Virus record (IMG/VR): IMGVR_UViG_3300046535_000406
Span: 45,498-109,497 of that record
Direction: 5' to 3' (one strand)
Length of the DNA stretch: 64,000 nucleotides
Source: a virus
Of the stretch, positions 27,748-62,158 are shown piece by piece (position 1 is the stretch's first letter; each line of letters opens with the position of its first letter). The position numbers were made by a program, and so were the translations under genes. Below the pieces are notes generated by a model. It saw nothing but the letters and a program-made list of their open reading frames with translations. It ran no database searches and was not told the origin of the DNA.

Positions 27748-27962
27748 GCGGCCACCAGTCTCAGCGCCACGTCACGCTCGGGATCGAACACGGCCATGAC
27801 GATCAGGTCATCGGGCAGGTCGAGCGTCGCCATCAGGTTGCGCTCGAAGAACTGGGAGTGGCCGCACAGGCAGGGATCGCTGTCGCCGTACCCACCGAAG
27901 CGGGCGGGACACGGCTGGTCGCCGTGGGCTCGATGTGCGCAGCTGGGGCAGGAGGGGAGCAA
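27744..27962 (-). CDS. Small zinc-ribbon protein, TTG start (72 aa)
   Basis: CPSC and CLCG motifs near the N-terminus suggest a metal site. The only workable start is TTG 27962, with GAGG 6 nt upstream. First gene after the promoter at 28074-28102. Confidence 0.5.
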   Translation of the reverse strand: MLPSCPSCAHRAHGDQPCPARFGGYGDSDPCLCGHSQFFERNLMATLDLPDDLIVMAVFDPERDVALRLVAA

Positions 27963-28073
27963 CGGTTACCTCGGTCAGTGCTAAGCGCGGTCCCAGAGCC
28001 CTCGAAGTGGAGCCACCGCCGTTCTTCCCGGGGGATGAATGGTGGTTCCTGACTCTCAGGACCGCGTCCAGAG

Positions 28074-28102
28074 AAGGTACAGGAAGATGTGCAGGAAGTC
28101 AA
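28074..28102 (-). promoter_or_regulatory. Dispersed promoter copy
   Basis: -35 TTGACT (28097-28102), 17-nt spacer beginning TCCTG, -10 TACCTT (28074-28079). It drives the 27962 operon with a leader of about 105 nt. Confidence 0.7.
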
Positions 28103-38897: not shown

Positions 38898-38941
38898 GGC
38901 TTGGAGCCTCCATGTTGACGGGGTGGTCCCCGCCTAGTACC

Positions 38942-40576: not shown

Positions 40577-40794
40577 CCGAGCGCGGGGAGGGCCGCCTTC
40601 AGGGCGCCCAGTCGTGTGCTGGCCCGGACGGTGATGGCCTCGATGGTGGTGATGCGGATGACCGTGCAGGTCCACACATCGTCCGTGCCCTTGGCGATCG
40701 ACGCGATGGTGGCTCCTGCCGCCCTGATCTTGTCGGCGACTGCCGCCTCACTGGGTGTGGCGTGCTCGATCTGGTGGTCATCTGGCTGGGACAA
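40573..40794 (-). CDS. Small protein, TTG start (73 aa)
   Basis: TTG 40794 has an excellent AGGAGG 5 nt upstream. A longer reading from GTG 40839 lacks one. An alternating beta/alpha pattern (IASIAKGTDDVWTCTVIRI). First gene after promoter 40888-40917. Confidence 0.5.
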   Translation of the reverse strand: MSQPDDHQIEHATPSEAAVADKIRAAGATIASIAKGTDDVWTCTVIRITTIEAITVRASTRLGALKAALPALG

Positions 40795-40887
40795 GGAGCC
40801 TCCTGCGAAGTTGCCGACCGGGACGTTTGCACCGGCCACCGGACCCGCCCTTGGATCAGAGTGGACCCGCCCCGGTCGGCTGCGCTG

Positions 40888-45241: not shown

Positions 45242-45292
45242 ACAGAGACGCCCCCGCCAGTCGCTCCAATCGACCTACGGGGGCGTCTCTGT
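45242..45292. terminator. Perfect 15-bp hairpin, probable bidirectional terminator
   Basis: ACAGAGACGCCCCCG (45242-45256) and its exact complement (45278-45292) flank a 22-nt loop. It would end rightward transcripts from the plus-strand island, and could end or attenuate leftward transcripts before gene 45226. Confidence 0.65.
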
Positions 45293-46014: not shown

Positions 46015-47007
46015 CTAGGACAGCAGCGCGAGCGCCTTGTCCTTCAGCGCGGCGGCAGGGCCGTCGAGGATGGCCTCAGCCCGAACATCGGCGGGGCTGG
46101 CGCCCTTCTTGCGGTAGGTCCGGAAGTGGTCGGCGTACTCGATCGTCGCCTGAAACAGCCGGTAGCTGGTGTTGGGGACTCCGACCAACGTCTCGCTGTT
46201 CACGAACAGGTCGGCGATCAGGTCGCGTGCGGCCTCGCGGCGGGGAGCCTGCTCGGCCTCCGGCGGGGTGGGGATCAACTTCTCCGTGAAGGCGAGCACG
46301 TCGTCCAGAGAGAGGGTCCGCTTGGTCAGCGCGATCATCTTCTGCTCGAACGCCTCGTCATACGCGGCGACCATCTTGAGTGCCCGGCGGGCCTCATCGA
46401 CGTTGACATCCATGTGCTTGGTGTGGCGGACGGTAATCTCGGGGCTGACCTCACCCATCGCCGCACTGGCGGTGTTGGAGCAGACCACCCGGGTCTGGAC
46501 GCGCTTGGCCTTCATGGCGTGGCGCCCATCGTGGCCGGTGATGCCCAGAAGGCGTCGCTGCCACGGAGAGTCGTCGCCCGGAACCTTGAACTTGTCGCTG
46601 TCACCGAGGTCCAGCTGGGCGAAGACGATGCGACCGTTGTAGAGCGAGCCCGCCGTGTCGTACTCGGCACCGGACTCGTCCCGGACCGCGTCGAGGAAGT
46701 CGGTCAGGTCGGTGAACTGGAACAGGCTGTAGGACGGGCGCACGAGCCCAAGCTGGGCGTTCGTGTCGGTGCGGATGACGGCGTTCCAGTCCGGAACGGC
46801 CACGTGGAGCGGGCCGTCGGGCGTGGGGACCACGGCCTCGACCGGGACCTTGGCGACCTCGAAGGCCACTTCGGCGCAGACCTCTACGATCTTCTTGGCG
46901 GTCATGCCGCCCGGGAAGGCGGTGCCGTCGCCGTGCCACGGCTTGCCGTTCAGGGAGTTGTAGACGAAGGCCGCTTTGCCGGTCGTCTTGTCGATCATTG
47001 CTGGCAT
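46015..47007 (-). CDS. DUF932 / phage-plasmid-like protein (TIGR03299 type)
   Basis: 330 residues. Family features: KPWHGDGTAFPGGMTA near the N-terminus, then RTDTNAQLGLVRPSYSLFQ, and AGSLYNGRIVFAQLDLG, CSNTAS and a C-terminal helical region. Members are widespread on phages and plasmids near replication and recombination genes, with no firm biochemical role. GAGG Shine-Dalgarno precedes ATG 47007. Confidence 0.8.
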   Translation of the reverse strand: MPAMIDKTTGKAAFVYNSLNGKPWHGDGTAFPGGMTAKKIVEVCAEVAFEVAKVPVEAVVPTPDGPLHVAVPDWNAVIRTDTNAQLGLVRPSYSLFQFTDLTDFLDAVRDESGAEYDTAGSLYNGRIVFAQLDLGDSDKFKVPGDDSPWQRRLLGITGHDGRHAMKAKRVQTRVVCSNTASAAMGEVSPEITVRHTKHMDVNVDEARRALKMVAAYDEAFEQKMIALTKRTLSLDDVLAFTEKLIPTPPEAEQAPRREAARDLIADLFVNSETLVGVPNTSYRLFQATIEYADHFRTYRKKGASPADVRAEAILDGPAAALKDKALALLS

Positions 47008-50342: not shown

Positions 50343-52362
50343 TGGCGACTCCTTCGCTGTTCTGGGTGACCTCGATGCGGTGCGCTCCCATGCGCTCCAA
50401 CCGCTCGATGACATCTGGGTGGTGGGACACGACGAGGATGCGGGTGAAGTCGTCGGCGATCGACGCGAGGGTGTCAAGCACGGCGTTGCGCCCAGCGTCG
50501 TCCTGCCAGCGGTCGAAGCTCTCATCGAGCACGAGCGTGTCGATGTGCCGGTCGGACAGGACCGAGGTGATGCCCATGCGGAGCGCCAGATCGACCCTGA
50601 ACTGCTGCCCGCCGGAGAGCATGGCGTAGTTACGTGGCGAGCCCGTCCCCGGATCAACGACCACGTCGAGCGTGTCCGTCGCCGTGCCCTTGGCAGTGGC
50701 CTTCTGGGTCAGGAGCCGCAGGCTGAAGTTGCCCGGCATCCGGGCCAGCACGCCGTTGGCGTGATCCTCGATCACCGGCAGGGCCGCTTCGAGCTTCATG
50801 GTCGGGATGCCGTCCCGACTGAATGCGTCCCGGACCACGGAGAAGATCGAGGCATCCTTCCGGGCAGCCTCCGTCTCGGAGAGCAGCCGGGTGTGTGTCT
50901 CGATGTCGCGGTCGATCGACATGCGCTCCAACGACTCGCTGGCGAAGTCCGACTTGGCCTCTTGGAGTCGCCCGACGATCCGGTCGCGACTCGCCTTGGC
51001 GGCTGCAAGCTCGACCTCAGCCGCGCTGAGCTTGCCTGCCTCAGCTTCCAGAGCGTCGTTCTCGGCCTTCAGGGCGCGACCGCGCTCCGCCAGTGGCGTC
51101 AATGCAGCCAGAGCCTCCGCTACGGCGCTCTGGGCACGCTCCAAGCTCGTTCTGGCATCGGAGTGGCGTCTATCCCAATCCAGCCAGTCGGAGCGCCCTG
51201 AGCGAGCCTTGGAGGCGACGGATGCGGCTTCGATGGCACGCTTCTGCGCCTCACCCAGCAGGGACTCCACCATCGCCAGATCGGCCTGAGCCTGCTCCAC
51301 GGCCACGGCGTCCACGCCGGGCTGGAAGACCTCACCGCAGTTGGGGCAGGTGACGGGCTTTGACTGACCGGCGGCGTCGAGCAGCGCCTGAGCGTGGGAC
51401 TTCTGATCCTTCAGCGCGAGGTGCTGGGCACGAGCGGTGGCGGCATCCTCAGCTGAGGCGGTCACCTGATCCTCGGACACGATCGCGAATGGGGAGGTGG
51501 TGACCAGCGTCAGGGTGGCCTGAGCCGCCGTGACACCCGCCAGAGCGTCGGTGTGCTTCACCTTGGCCGCAAGGAACTCCTTGCGTGCATCCGCAAGCTG
51601 GGCCTCGACCACGGTGGCGCGGTAGGCCCGCGCCTTGGCGTCAGCCAGCGCGGTGACGGCCTCGTCCGCCTCGGTGGTGGCCTTCAGCAGCGATAGCTCG
51701 CCCTCGCGGATCACCTCTGCGGCTGCCGCCAACCGCGCTGCCGCCGCTTCACGGAGCGCAGGAAGGTCGGCAGTCGAGAGGTGTGCCAGCTGGGTGGCGT
51801 TGGAGTCAATGATGGCCTTGGCGGACGCGACGTGGGCCTTGGCGGCCTCCACCCACTCCGGGTACTGCTCCTGATCCAGCAGCAGGTCGATCAGCAGGTC
51901 TTTGCGATCCTTGGGCTGCTCGTCCATCAGGTTCCGGGTGCGCTGCAAGGCGAACGGGCCAGCCAGCAGGGCGTCGTAACCGATCCCGATGCGTCGGCGT
52001 ACCTCGGCCCGCGTCTCGGGGCCGGTGGCAGCGGTCCCCAGACCGACCTTCAGCGGCTGCCCATCAACCGCGAGAGACAGGGTAGCGTCGCGGCCACGGC
52101 CCTTCGAGCGGGTGATCGTCAGGGGCTGGCCCTCCACGACCACGTCCAGCGACACGGAGCACGAGTCGGCACCGTCGCGGATCAACTCGTCCAGCGTCGG
52201 GGCTCGGGACTTGTCCCAGATGGCCCACGTGATCGCTTCGATGATCGCGGACTTGCCAGCGCCGACGGGTCCCGTCAGGACCCCGATGTGGATGCCTCGC
52301 AGATCGAGGTCGGTGTCCTCGTGGGCGAACCAGTTGCGAAGCCGAATGGCCTGAACGTCTAT
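50323..52362 (-). CDS. sbcC: SbcC/Rad50-like ATPase of the SbcCD nuclease; AUA start
   Basis: 679 residues if started at ATA 52362, which follows a GGAGG at 5-nt spacing. The first in-frame TTG (52185) would remove the Walker A, GPVGAGKS (residues 31-38). A stop lies just upstream, and no ATG, GTG or TTG precedes the Walker A. Long Ala-rich coiled coils flank the zinc hook CPNC (about 338). The C-terminus has the signature LSGGQQFRVDLALRMG (about 581), Walker B LVLDES and an H-loop VVSHH. With SbcD, 0.9 kb upstream, it forms an exonuclease/hairpin nuclease for DNA ends and recombination. Confidence 0.85.
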   Translation of the reverse strand: MDVQAIRLRNWFAHEDTDLDLRGIHIGVLTGPVGAGKSAIIEAITWAIWDKSRAPTLDELIRDGADSCSVSLDVVVEGQPLTITRSKGRGRDATLSLAVDGQPLKVGLGTAATGPETRAEVRRRIGIGYDALLAGPFALQRTRNLMDEQPKDRKDLLIDLLLDQEQYPEWVEAAKAHVASAKAIIDSNATQLAHLSTADLPALREAAAARLAAAAEVIREGELSLLKATTEADEAVTALADAKARAYRATVVEAQLADARKEFLAAKVKHTDALAGVTAAQATLTLVTTSPFAIVSEDQVTASAEDAATARAQHLALKDQKSHAQALLDAAGQSKPVTCPNCGEVFQPGVDAVAVEQAQADLAMVESLLGEAQKRAIEAASVASKARSGRSDWLDWDRRHSDARTSLERAQSAVAEALAALTPLAERGRALKAENDALEAEAGKLSAAEVELAAAKASRDRIVGRLQEAKSDFASESLERMSIDRDIETHTRLLSETEAARKDASIFSVVRDAFSRDGIPTMKLEAALPVIEDHANGVLARMPGNFSLRLLTQKATAKGTATDTLDVVVDPGTGSPRNYAMLSGGQQFRVDLALRMGITSVLSDRHIDTLVLDESFDRWQDDAGRNAVLDTLASIADDFTRILVVSHHPDVIERLERMGAHRIEVTQNSEGVASASIAA

Positions 52363-52387
52363 GGGAGCCTCCGGTCAGCGTGCGAAC

Positions 52388-52476
52388 GCACTGGTGGCAG
52401 AGTCCGAGGTTCGAGCAGAGCCTCGGACCCCCCGTGAGGACCTGCGAAGGTCGCGGGGCTGGACTGCCACCAGTGC
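52388..52476 (-). ncRNA. Structured leader RNA (three-way junction) of the sbcC operon
   Basis: Three nested stems are visible. P1 has 13 bp, GCACTGGTGGCAG (52388-52400) with its complement (52464-52476). P2 has 8 bp (52402-52409 with 52421-52428). P3 pairs CCCCG with CGGGG (52430-52434, 52454-52458) and GACC with GGTC. The promoter's expected start is about 52477, so the transcript would begin with P1 itself. The sbcC ribosome-binding site follows 17 nt beyond. A regulatory or RNA-stabilising element is likely; the ligand, if any, is unknown. Confidence 0.55.
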
Positions 52477-52483
52477 TTCGGAG

Positions 52484-52512
52484 AAGGTACTCCTGCGCCG
52501 ACAGGAAGTCAA
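52484..52512 (-). promoter_or_regulatory. Dispersed promoter copy
   Basis: -35 TTGACT (52507-52512), 17-nt spacer starting TCCTG, -10 TACCTT (52484-52489). Begins 4 nt after the TGA of gene 52517-52888. Confidence 0.7.
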
Positions 52513-52516
52513 TAGC

Positions 52517-52888
52517 TCAGAGGCTGGCAATCCAGTCATCGAACGTCTTGCCCGGGTTGGCGGTCTGCCACTCGAACAGGGCACGCCGCTGACGCATCGA
52601 CAAGCCCGAGGGCATGTGCGGGCCGCAGGTGCGCCGGTAGCCGGTCATGGTGGGCGTGCCGCACGAGGACTGCTCCATGCACCCGGGCTCGTCACAGCGG
52701 GCCTGTGGGGCAGGCATGGGGTCATCCCAGCCAAGCACCTCGAACGCTTCCTCCAACGCCGACAGGCCGCCGGTCCAGTAGCCGCCATCCCTGTCGGACC
52801 AGTAGGCGAACTGGCGGCACATGCCTTCGAGGGCTTCGCGAAGCTCCTGTTCGGTGGGGTGGCGGGTCAGGGCTTCTTCTTGCGCCAT
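52517..52888 (-). CDS. Cys-bearing protein (123 aa)
   Basis: ATG 52888. A helical N-terminus (TEQELREALEGMCRQFAYW), then CDEPGCMEQSSC and a CGPH knuckle. Ends with KTFDDWIASL. Last gene of the SbcD-containing operon. Function unknown. Confidence 0.5.
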   Translation of the reverse strand: MAQEEALTRHPTEQELREALEGMCRQFAYWSDRDGGYWTGGLSALEEAFEVLGWDDPMPAPQARCDEPGCMEQSSCGTPTMTGYRRTCGPHMPSGLSMRQRRALFEWQTANPGKTFDDWIASL

Positions 52889-56066: not shown

Positions 56067-56450
56067 TCATTCGGGCTCGGGGATGGCGAGCATTCGCCGG
56101 GCCTTCTGCATGGCCCAGCACCCCTTGGGGCGCAGGGCAAGACTCTTGGTCGCCTCGCAGCGACACAGGACGGCTCGGTCGTTGGGGCCGAAGTCGAACA
56201 CCGACACGACATGCGGCGGACCGTCATGGCGCGAGGGGAAGACCAGTGCGACAGGGTCTGGGAACGGGTCCGGCACCGGCACGGGAACGGGCTCCGAACC
56301 ATCCATGGTCAGTTGCTCGAACGGAGCGGGCGGCTTCCGCCCGGACTTGACTTCGAGCACGGTCGCAGAAGCTCCCCCAGAAGGAGCCTCCTCGAACGGG
56401 CGGACGACGGGACCGGCGAACTCCGTGTCCTCGTCGAGCAACGTAACCAT
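56067..56450 (-). CDS. Protein with Pro/Val linker, leaderless (127 aa)
   Basis: ATG 56450 is exactly 7 nt after the -10 CATACT, so the mRNA should begin at the start codon. A low-complexity EPVPVPVPDPFPDP linker joins two parts; the second has CRCEATKSLALRPKGCW. Function unknown. Confidence 0.5.
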   Translation of the reverse strand: MVTLLDEDTEFAGPVVRPFEEAPSGGASATVLEVKSGRKPPAPFEQLTMDGSEPVPVPVPDPFPDPVALVFPSRHDGPPHVVSVFDFGPNDRAVLCRCEATKSLALRPKGCWAMQKARRMLAIPEPE

Positions 56451-56457
56451 GCGTCGG

Positions 56458-56486
56458 AGTATGGGCTTCCGGGGTCAGGAAGTCAA
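56458..56486 (-). promoter_or_regulatory. Dispersed promoter copy, leaderless, inside a coding end
   Basis: -35 TTGACT (56481-56486), 17-nt spacer starting TCCTG, -10 CATACT (56458-56463). The upstream gene is read through TTG ACT TCC and stops at the following TGA. Confidence 0.75.
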
Positions 56487-57710: not shown

Positions 57711-57759
57711 CTTGGCCTCCTTTGGCCGCCGGGGGAGTGGAGCTTCCGGCGACAACGTC

Positions 57760-62083: not shown

Positions 62084-62128
62084 CTTGGCCTCCTGTAGGG
62101 CGGGCTCTTGGAGCGGCCCGGCAAGGCC

Positions 62129-62158
62129 ATCCTACACCCGCGCCCTACAGGAGGTCAA
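62129..62158 (-). promoter_or_regulatory. Dispersed promoter copy
   Basis: -35 TTGACC (62153-62158), 18-nt spacer starting TCCTG, -10 TAGGAT (62129-62134). Begins 4 nt after the TGA of the preceding gene. Confidence 0.7.

What the first reader, a model, noticed from the sequence alone, without database searches (positions are those of the whole stretch)
52388..52476. Three-way-junction leader RNA beginning at the sbcC promoter start site
P1 (13 perfect bp), P2 (8 bp) and P3 form a compact junction, and the predicted transcription start falls at the first base of P1. The structure ends just before the sbcC ribosome-binding site. This is the strongest candidate for a new structured RNA in the window.
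Basis: partly seen in the sequence, partly recalled or inferred. Interest (0 to 1): 0.75.

Follow-up and report, generated by a model that had tools for sequence, protein, structure and literature searches.

The report
Phage mRNA leaders capped by hairpins
The folded RNA in front of this phage's DNA-repair gene (sbcC) is real and begins exactly where its messenger RNA should start; it is the most elaborate of a set of start-site hairpins made from one phage promoter family, which most likely shield the message from decay, though that function is untested.

Summary
On the minus strand, 52476-52388 folds into a three-way junction (-56.2 kcal/mol, z -6.0) closed by 13 perfect pairs, among the strongest folds in the window. 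It lies in the 5' UTR of an sbcC-like gene of a 109.5-kb uncultured phage, probably of an actinobacterium. No Rfam family matches and no homologous leader was found, so covariation of this junction cannot be tested.

The context is the result. Its promoter (TTGACTTCCTG-N12-TACCTT) is one of 16 members of a phage-wide minus-strand family. Across the other 15 leaders, helix strength with the outermost 5' base at position +8 after the -10, the predicted start site, exceeds shuffles (z 4.4). At least five leaders start with a stem there, three of them large. Unrelated stem sequences keep the pairing. A second uncultured phage group with the same -35 motif also has a hairpin at +8, with different base pairs. 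Streptomyces phage Moab, with many similar promoters, does not.

Best explanation: a 5'-terminal stem-loop leader that leaves no unpaired 5' end, most likely protecting mRNA from 5'-end-dependent decay. A ligand-sensing RNA is less likely, because the three large leaders share no interior architecture. Function is inferred. Side finding: sbcC appears to start with ATA.

The parts
52484..52512 (-). Promoter of the phage family: TTGACT (-35) - 17 nt - TACCTT (-10)
   Evidence: Family of 16 minus-strand sites scoring 22-40 bits; 0-2 sites above 13 bits in shuffled sequence
52476..52476 (-). Predicted transcription start, first base of P1 (+8 after the -10)
   Evidence: Inferred: apparently leaderless sibling gene has the A of its ATG at +8 (56450); stems of other leaders also begin there
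52388..52476 (-). Three-way-junction leader RNA, 89 nt, closed on itself
   Evidence: MFE -56.2 kcal/mol, z -6.0; one of the strongest folds in the window
52464..52476 (-). P1 5' strand (pairs with 52388-52400)
   Evidence: 13 perfect pairs
52430..52458 (-). P2 hairpin, CCCCG-GACCU / AGGUC-CGGGG (5+5 pairs with a bulge)
52401..52429 (-). P3 hairpin, 8 Watson-Crick pairs plus one G-U and an inner 2-bp extension; abuts the 3' strand of P1 without a linker
52388..52400 (-). P1 3' strand
52368..52372 (-). Shine-Dalgarno GGAGG of sbcC, 15 nt after P1
50323..52362 (-). sbcC-like gene, 679 aa, apparent start codon ATA at 52362-52360
   Evidence: phrog_77 SbcC-like subunit E 5e-48 from residue 5; no ATG/GTG/TTG in frame before 52185, which would remove the Walker A motif
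40813..40880 (-). Sibling sealed leader: 13-bp P1 starting at +8 of promoter 40917; gene starts TTG at 40794
27987..28066 (-). Sibling sealed leader: P1 starting at +8 of promoter 28102; gene starts TTG at 27962
57725..57753 (-). Sibling leader with an 8-bp stem at +7/+8 of promoter 57788
38917..38934 (-). Sibling leader with a 7-bp hairpin at +8 of promoter 38970
56450..56486 (-). Apparently leaderless member of the promoter family, used to place the start site

Best explanation
The element is a 5'-terminal stem-loop leader of the sbcC mRNA. Transcription from a phage-family promoter begins at the first base of P1, so the first 89 nt of the mRNA fold into a closed domain with no unpaired 5' nucleotides, followed by a short linker, the Shine-Dalgarno and the gene. 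The most likely job is to protect the message: enzymes that start mRNA decay at the 5' end (RppH, the 5' sensor of RNase E, RNase J) need a single-stranded 5' end. A secondary effect may be to keep upstream sequence from pairing with the ribosome-binding site. The interior (P2, P3) looks like filler or extra stability, not a specific pocket, because the other large leaders reach the same sealed end with different interiors. Shown by computation: the fold, the promoter family, and the enrichment of stems at the predicted start site in this phage, with the same arrangement in a second phage group. Inferred: the exact start site, that the RNA is made, and all of its function.
For: Fold and position. 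Promoter family of 16. Helix strength with the outermost 5' base at +8 after the -10: mean 15.5 for 16 leaders against 10.5 +/- 0.8 in shuffles; leaving out sbcC, 14.2 against 10.4 +/- 0.86, z 4.4, 0 of 600 shuffles as high, and 4 leaders above the strong-helix mark against 0.45 expected. Predicted unpaired probability of the first five nucleotides is about 0.01 or less for 52476, 40880 and 38934. Stems differ in sequence: each 5' arm fits its own 3' arm (7 of 7) but others only 0-5 of 7. A second phage group with the same -35 motif has hairpins at +7/+8 directly before its Shine-Dalgarno, 39 of 42 pairs kept across six different stems, 14 of 5000 arm swaps as good. Control: Streptomyces phage Moab, 41 TTGAC/TANNNT sites, no rise at +8. 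[quoted passage not shown] B. subtilis RppH needs at least two unpaired 5' nucleotides (PMC3997798).
Against: No transcript, 5' end or half-life data. Only about a third of the family's leaders are clearly sealed at +1; several are open and one looks leaderless, so sealing is not needed for expression. In Mycolicibacterium smegmatis a 5' double hairpin did not stabilise a reporter and 5' structure did not correlate with half-life genome-wide (PMC11728522); the host here is not known. A simple hairpin would cap an mRNA, so the 89-nt junction is larger than this explanation requires. No homologous leader was found to test covariation of P2 and P3.
Confidence: 0.6

Rival explanations
1. It is a specific regulatory RNA (riboswitch-like or a protein-binding operator, for example autoregulation by SbcC/SbcD) that controls sbcC translation.
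For: Compact three-way junction just upstream of the ribosome-binding site; one of the strongest folds in the window. The P1 3' end (GUGC) could pair instead with the GCAC just downstream, a possible switch.
Against: No Rfam match. The other two large sealed leaders have different interiors. No homologue is known that could show conserved junction residues. No competing structure between the junction and the Shine-Dalgarno was predicted in the transcript from its own start site.
Confidence: 0.12
2. It is an RNase III processing site: P1 (13 bp) stacked on P3 (9 bp) gives about 22 bp of near-continuous duplex that is cut to make a processed mRNA.
For: P3 abuts P1 without a linker in the predicted fold. 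RNase III processing of phage leaders is established in T7 and lambda (own knowledge).
Against: The sibling leaders of 7-8 bp and the second group's 5-8 bp hairpins are too short for this, so it would not explain the class. Coaxial stacking was not tested.
Confidence: 0.1
3. It mainly acts as an insulator that keeps the leader from pairing with the ribosome-binding site, including silencing of read-through transcripts whose -35 sequence pairs with the Shine-Dalgarno.
For: Opening the sbcC Shine-Dalgarno costs 9.9 kcal/mol in a read-through transcript, 4.8 from the own start site and 5.4 +/- 2.3 with shuffled upstream sequence; 62158 shows it strongly (14.4 against 6.2 and 7.2). T4 genes with internal late promoters are described as working this way (PMC3014915).
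Against: Not general: 6 of 12 leaders exceed shuffled upstream. It does not explain why stems begin exactly at +1.
Confidence: 0.12
4. The palindrome matters as DNA (cruciform, replication or recombination site, or a remnant of a mobile element), not as RNA.
For: The single DNA strand also folds well (-31.5 kcal/mol, z -6.4), the gene next to it encodes a nuclease of a hairpin-cutting family, and both strands fold.
Against: Alignment of P1 with the predicted start site, repeated in sibling leaders and in another phage group, has no reason on a DNA model. No target-site duplication is seen next to it; single copy in the genome.
Confidence: 0.06

Closest known systems
5'-terminal stem-loop mRNA stabilisers (E. 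coli ompA and papA, B. subtilis aprE leaders; references in PMC3997798 and PMC7509114)
   Same: Stem-loop at or near the extreme 5' end of the mRNA, followed by a single-stranded stretch with a strong Shine-Dalgarno.
   Different: Those are single host genes; here it recurs across one phage promoter family with unrelated sequences, and the sbcC case is a three-way junction. Stabilisation is not shown here.
SAS/ESAS elements of cluster K mycobacteriophages (PMC3203893)
   Same: Repeated elements in an actinophage with inverted repeats upstream of the Shine-Dalgarno of a subset of genes.
   Different: SAS/ESAS have a conserved sequence (GGGATAGGAGCCC and 17-bp imperfect repeats); here the promoter is conserved and the stems are not.
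T4 late-gene leaders (gene e type; PMC3014915)
   Same: Promoter position decides which leader structure the mRNA carries.
   Different: In T4 the structure blocks translation of longer transcripts; here the structure lies wholly downstream of the start site. The T4-like arrangement is only hinted at for 62158 and sbcC.

Membership tests
5'-terminal stem-loop stabiliser leaders | Stem begins at or within a few nucleotides of the mRNA 5' end | tested here: met
   P1 begins at the predicted start site; enriched at +8 across the family. The start site itself is predicted, not mapped.
5'-terminal stem-loop stabiliser leaders | Strong ribosome-binding site downstream of the stem | tested here: met
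   GGAGG at 52372-52368, 15 nt after P1
5'-terminal stem-loop stabiliser leaders | Longer mRNA half-life that depends on the 5' pairing | not testable with these tools
   Needs RNA decay measurements
Riboswitch or other described RNA family | Match to an Rfam covariance model | tested here: not met
   None at gathering threshold in the window or the rest of the genome; best weak hit RT-13, 15.8 bits against 69.1 needed
Conserved structured RNA family | Covariation across homologous leaders | tested here: inconclusive
   No homologous leader found. Only analogous +1 stems in a second phage group could be compared, in a hand-centred set of six.
SAS/ESAS (cluster K mycobacteriophages) | 13-bp GGGATAGGAGCCC at the start codon plus 17-bp inverted repeats | tested here: not met
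   Leader and Shine-Dalgarno read TGACCGGAGGCTCCCATA; definition
Intrinsic terminator or attenuator | GC-rich hairpin followed by a run of T | tested here: not met
   None found in 52200-52700

The most novel reading that the evidence does not exclude
Two groups of uncultured phages lock a stem of free sequence to +1 of a shared promoter type, a genetically encoded substitute for an mRNA cap that guards phage messages against host or defence RNases, with the sbcC junction as an enlarged form that lets genes with poor start codons be expressed.
Probability: 0.2. Interest if true: 0.65.

Novelty: new variant of a known kind. Interest (0 to 1): 0.45.

Why it matters
If right, these phages pair a promoter family with start-site stems of unrelated sequence, so the same protective end is reached again and again by selection on pairing alone. 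That gives a clean, testable case for 5'-end protection of phage mRNA in a group of bacteria where host 5' structure has been reported not to matter (M. smegmatis, PMC11728522), and a sequence-only way to look for such leaders in other phages.

Tried and rejected
Close relatives for covariation: DNA search in phages, SbcC, SbcD and DUF932 proteins in viral contigs and the P1 pattern gave none; terminase gave only about 25-40% identity. The upstream gene has no phage homologue. SbcC relatives in distant phages are too diverged to align leaders; their upstream regions were not folded. Promoter pattern in bacterial genomes: 25 single hits, judged mostly chance. Further viral hits of the promoter pattern in other contigs (L064-L070) look unrelated by composition, though L064/L067-L069 and L070 also predict a stem at +8; I did not pursue them. 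MAFFT misaligned the short hairpins, so pair counting was done on hand-centred 17-mers in a script; centring them on the loop favours pairing, so the arm-swap control is the fair comparison. tRNA or tmRNA: none. Read-through silencing as a general rule: rejected (6 of 12). Literature searches for start-site hairpins in phage leaders returned nothing specific, which shows only that this library holds none under those words.

Full report
Setting. The window is bases 45498-109497 of a 109.5-kb virus record. It has a phage terminase, a portal protein and SbcC/SbcD-like genes. Its DUF932 protein matches mainly phages of Mycobacterium, Streptomyces, Arthrobacter, Gordonia and Microbacterium, so the host is probably an actinobacterium; this is an inference. 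No close relative was found in the phage or viral collections.

The structure. Genes around 52 kb lie on the minus strand, so the relevant RNA is the minus strand. It folds into a three-way junction of -56.2 kcal/mol (z -6.0), with a 13-bp perfect P1. Both strands fold well and the plus strand folds better, but the promoter, Shine-Dalgarno and gene are all on the minus strand. In a scan of 21,304 windows of 90 nt on both strands, this stretch ranks first (plus strand) and third (minus strand) after overlapping windows are merged. It is single copy in the genome and matches no Rfam family.

The promoter. TTGACTTCCTG-N12-TACCTT at 52512-52484 is one of a family found on the minus strand only: 16 sites with spacing 17-18. 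Two more sites (24370, 18266) carry the -35 motif but have a -10-like sequence only 8 nt further on. Many spacers hold a CCTG-N6-CAGG dyad, perhaps an operator. One member (56486) drives a gene whose ATG is at +8 after the -10, which looks leaderless and so places the start site at about +8; the same rule puts the sbcC start at 52476, the first base of P1.

Stems at the start site. I scored, for each position, the strongest uninterrupted helix whose outermost 5' base is at that position. Averaged over the leaders, the transcribed region peaks at +8. Against dinucleotide shuffles the 16 leaders score 15.5 against 10.5 +/- 0.8. Leaving out the sbcC leader that prompted the test, the other 15 score 14.2 against 10.4 +/- 0.86 (z 4.4, 0 of 600). 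A second peak at -24, slightly higher than +8 once sbcC is left out, lies in the untranscribed -35 region; I attribute it to the spacer dyad and to similarity of the -35 motif to an anti-Shine-Dalgarno, without having tested that separately. Leaders with large sealed domains are 52476 (13 bp), 40880 (13 bp) and 28066 (9-10 bp); 57753 (8 bp) and 38934 (7 bp) have small ones. Several members (60652, 59992, 47208, -44168, 56486) have no sealed 5' end. The score and the offset were chosen after seeing the first cases, so the z value should be read as strong but not as a planned test.

A second phage group. Contigs L029, L032 and L033 carry the same -35 motif. Their leaders have 5-8 bp hairpins at +7/+8 followed by CACCCC-NN-ACTGGAGAAC and the ATG; L071 and L074 carry similar leaders, and L079 has a hairpin before the same Shine-Dalgarno without a clear promoter. 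Sites of the same Shine-Dalgarno that lie behind an upstream gene mostly lack such a hairpin next to it. Six different stems keep 39 of 42 pairs; 14 of 5000 arm swaps do as well. One gene behind this promoter in L033 is phrog_1221 (DUF932), the same family as window 46015-47007, which also sits behind the promoter family. Streptomyces phage Moab has 41 TTGAC/TANNNT sites and no rise at +8; not all 41 need be promoters. Three other actinophages had no sites of this form and give no information.

Interpretation. Conservation of pairing at +1 without conservation of sequence or interior shape points to the sealed 5' end as the selected trait. RNase E and RppH need single-stranded 5' ends, and B. 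subtilis RppH needs at least two unpaired nucleotides (PMC3997798). The sbcC leader leaves none. Against this, 5' structure did not stabilise mRNA in M. smegmatis (PMC11728522). I put the cap/stabiliser reading at 0.6.

Start codons. The three large sealed leaders precede genes that start with ATA (sbcC), TTG and TTG, whereas the other members with a clear Shine-Dalgarno start with ATG. This is a small, after-the-fact comparison. Poorly initiated messages are less protected by ribosomes, so sealing could compensate; that is speculation. For sbcC no ATG, GTG or TTG lies in frame before 52185, inside the conserved ATPase domain, so ATA, or less likely the ATT five codons on, is the only plausible start unless the assembly has an error.

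Noticed in passing
52360-52362 (-): sbcC appears to start with ATA (GGAGG-N5-ATA); no ATG/GTG/TTG in frame before the Walker A motif. Rare start, or a sequencing error.
   Followed up: partly
16 promoters, e.g. 60652, 59992, 57788, 47208, 48028 (-): Phage-wide promoter family TTGACTTCCTG-N12/13-YANNNT, minus strand only, many with a CCTG-N6-CAGG dyad in the spacer that may be an operator.
   Followed up: partly
24370 and 18266 (-): Same -35 motif but with a -10-like hexamer (TAAGAT, TACACT) only 8 nt downstream; may not be ordinary promoters.
   Followed up: no
62085-62158: 18-bp inverted repeat between the -35 region and the Shine-Dalgarno of the same gene; a read-through transcript would hide the Shine-Dalgarno (opening cost 14.4 against 6.2 kcal/mol).
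   Followed up: partly
28314-28120 (-): Region behind promoter 28351 with no clear gene before the next promoter at 28102; possible small RNA.
   Followed up: no
45242-45292 (-): Strong 22-nt-arm hairpin (ACAGAGACGCCCCCGCC) between genes, second-best fold of the window; no obvious T run.
   Followed up: no
L029, L032, L033, L071, L074: Repeated leader in uncultured phages: +1 hairpin, CACCCC-NN-ACTGGAGAAC, ATG; a candidate for proper covariation analysis.
   Followed up: partly
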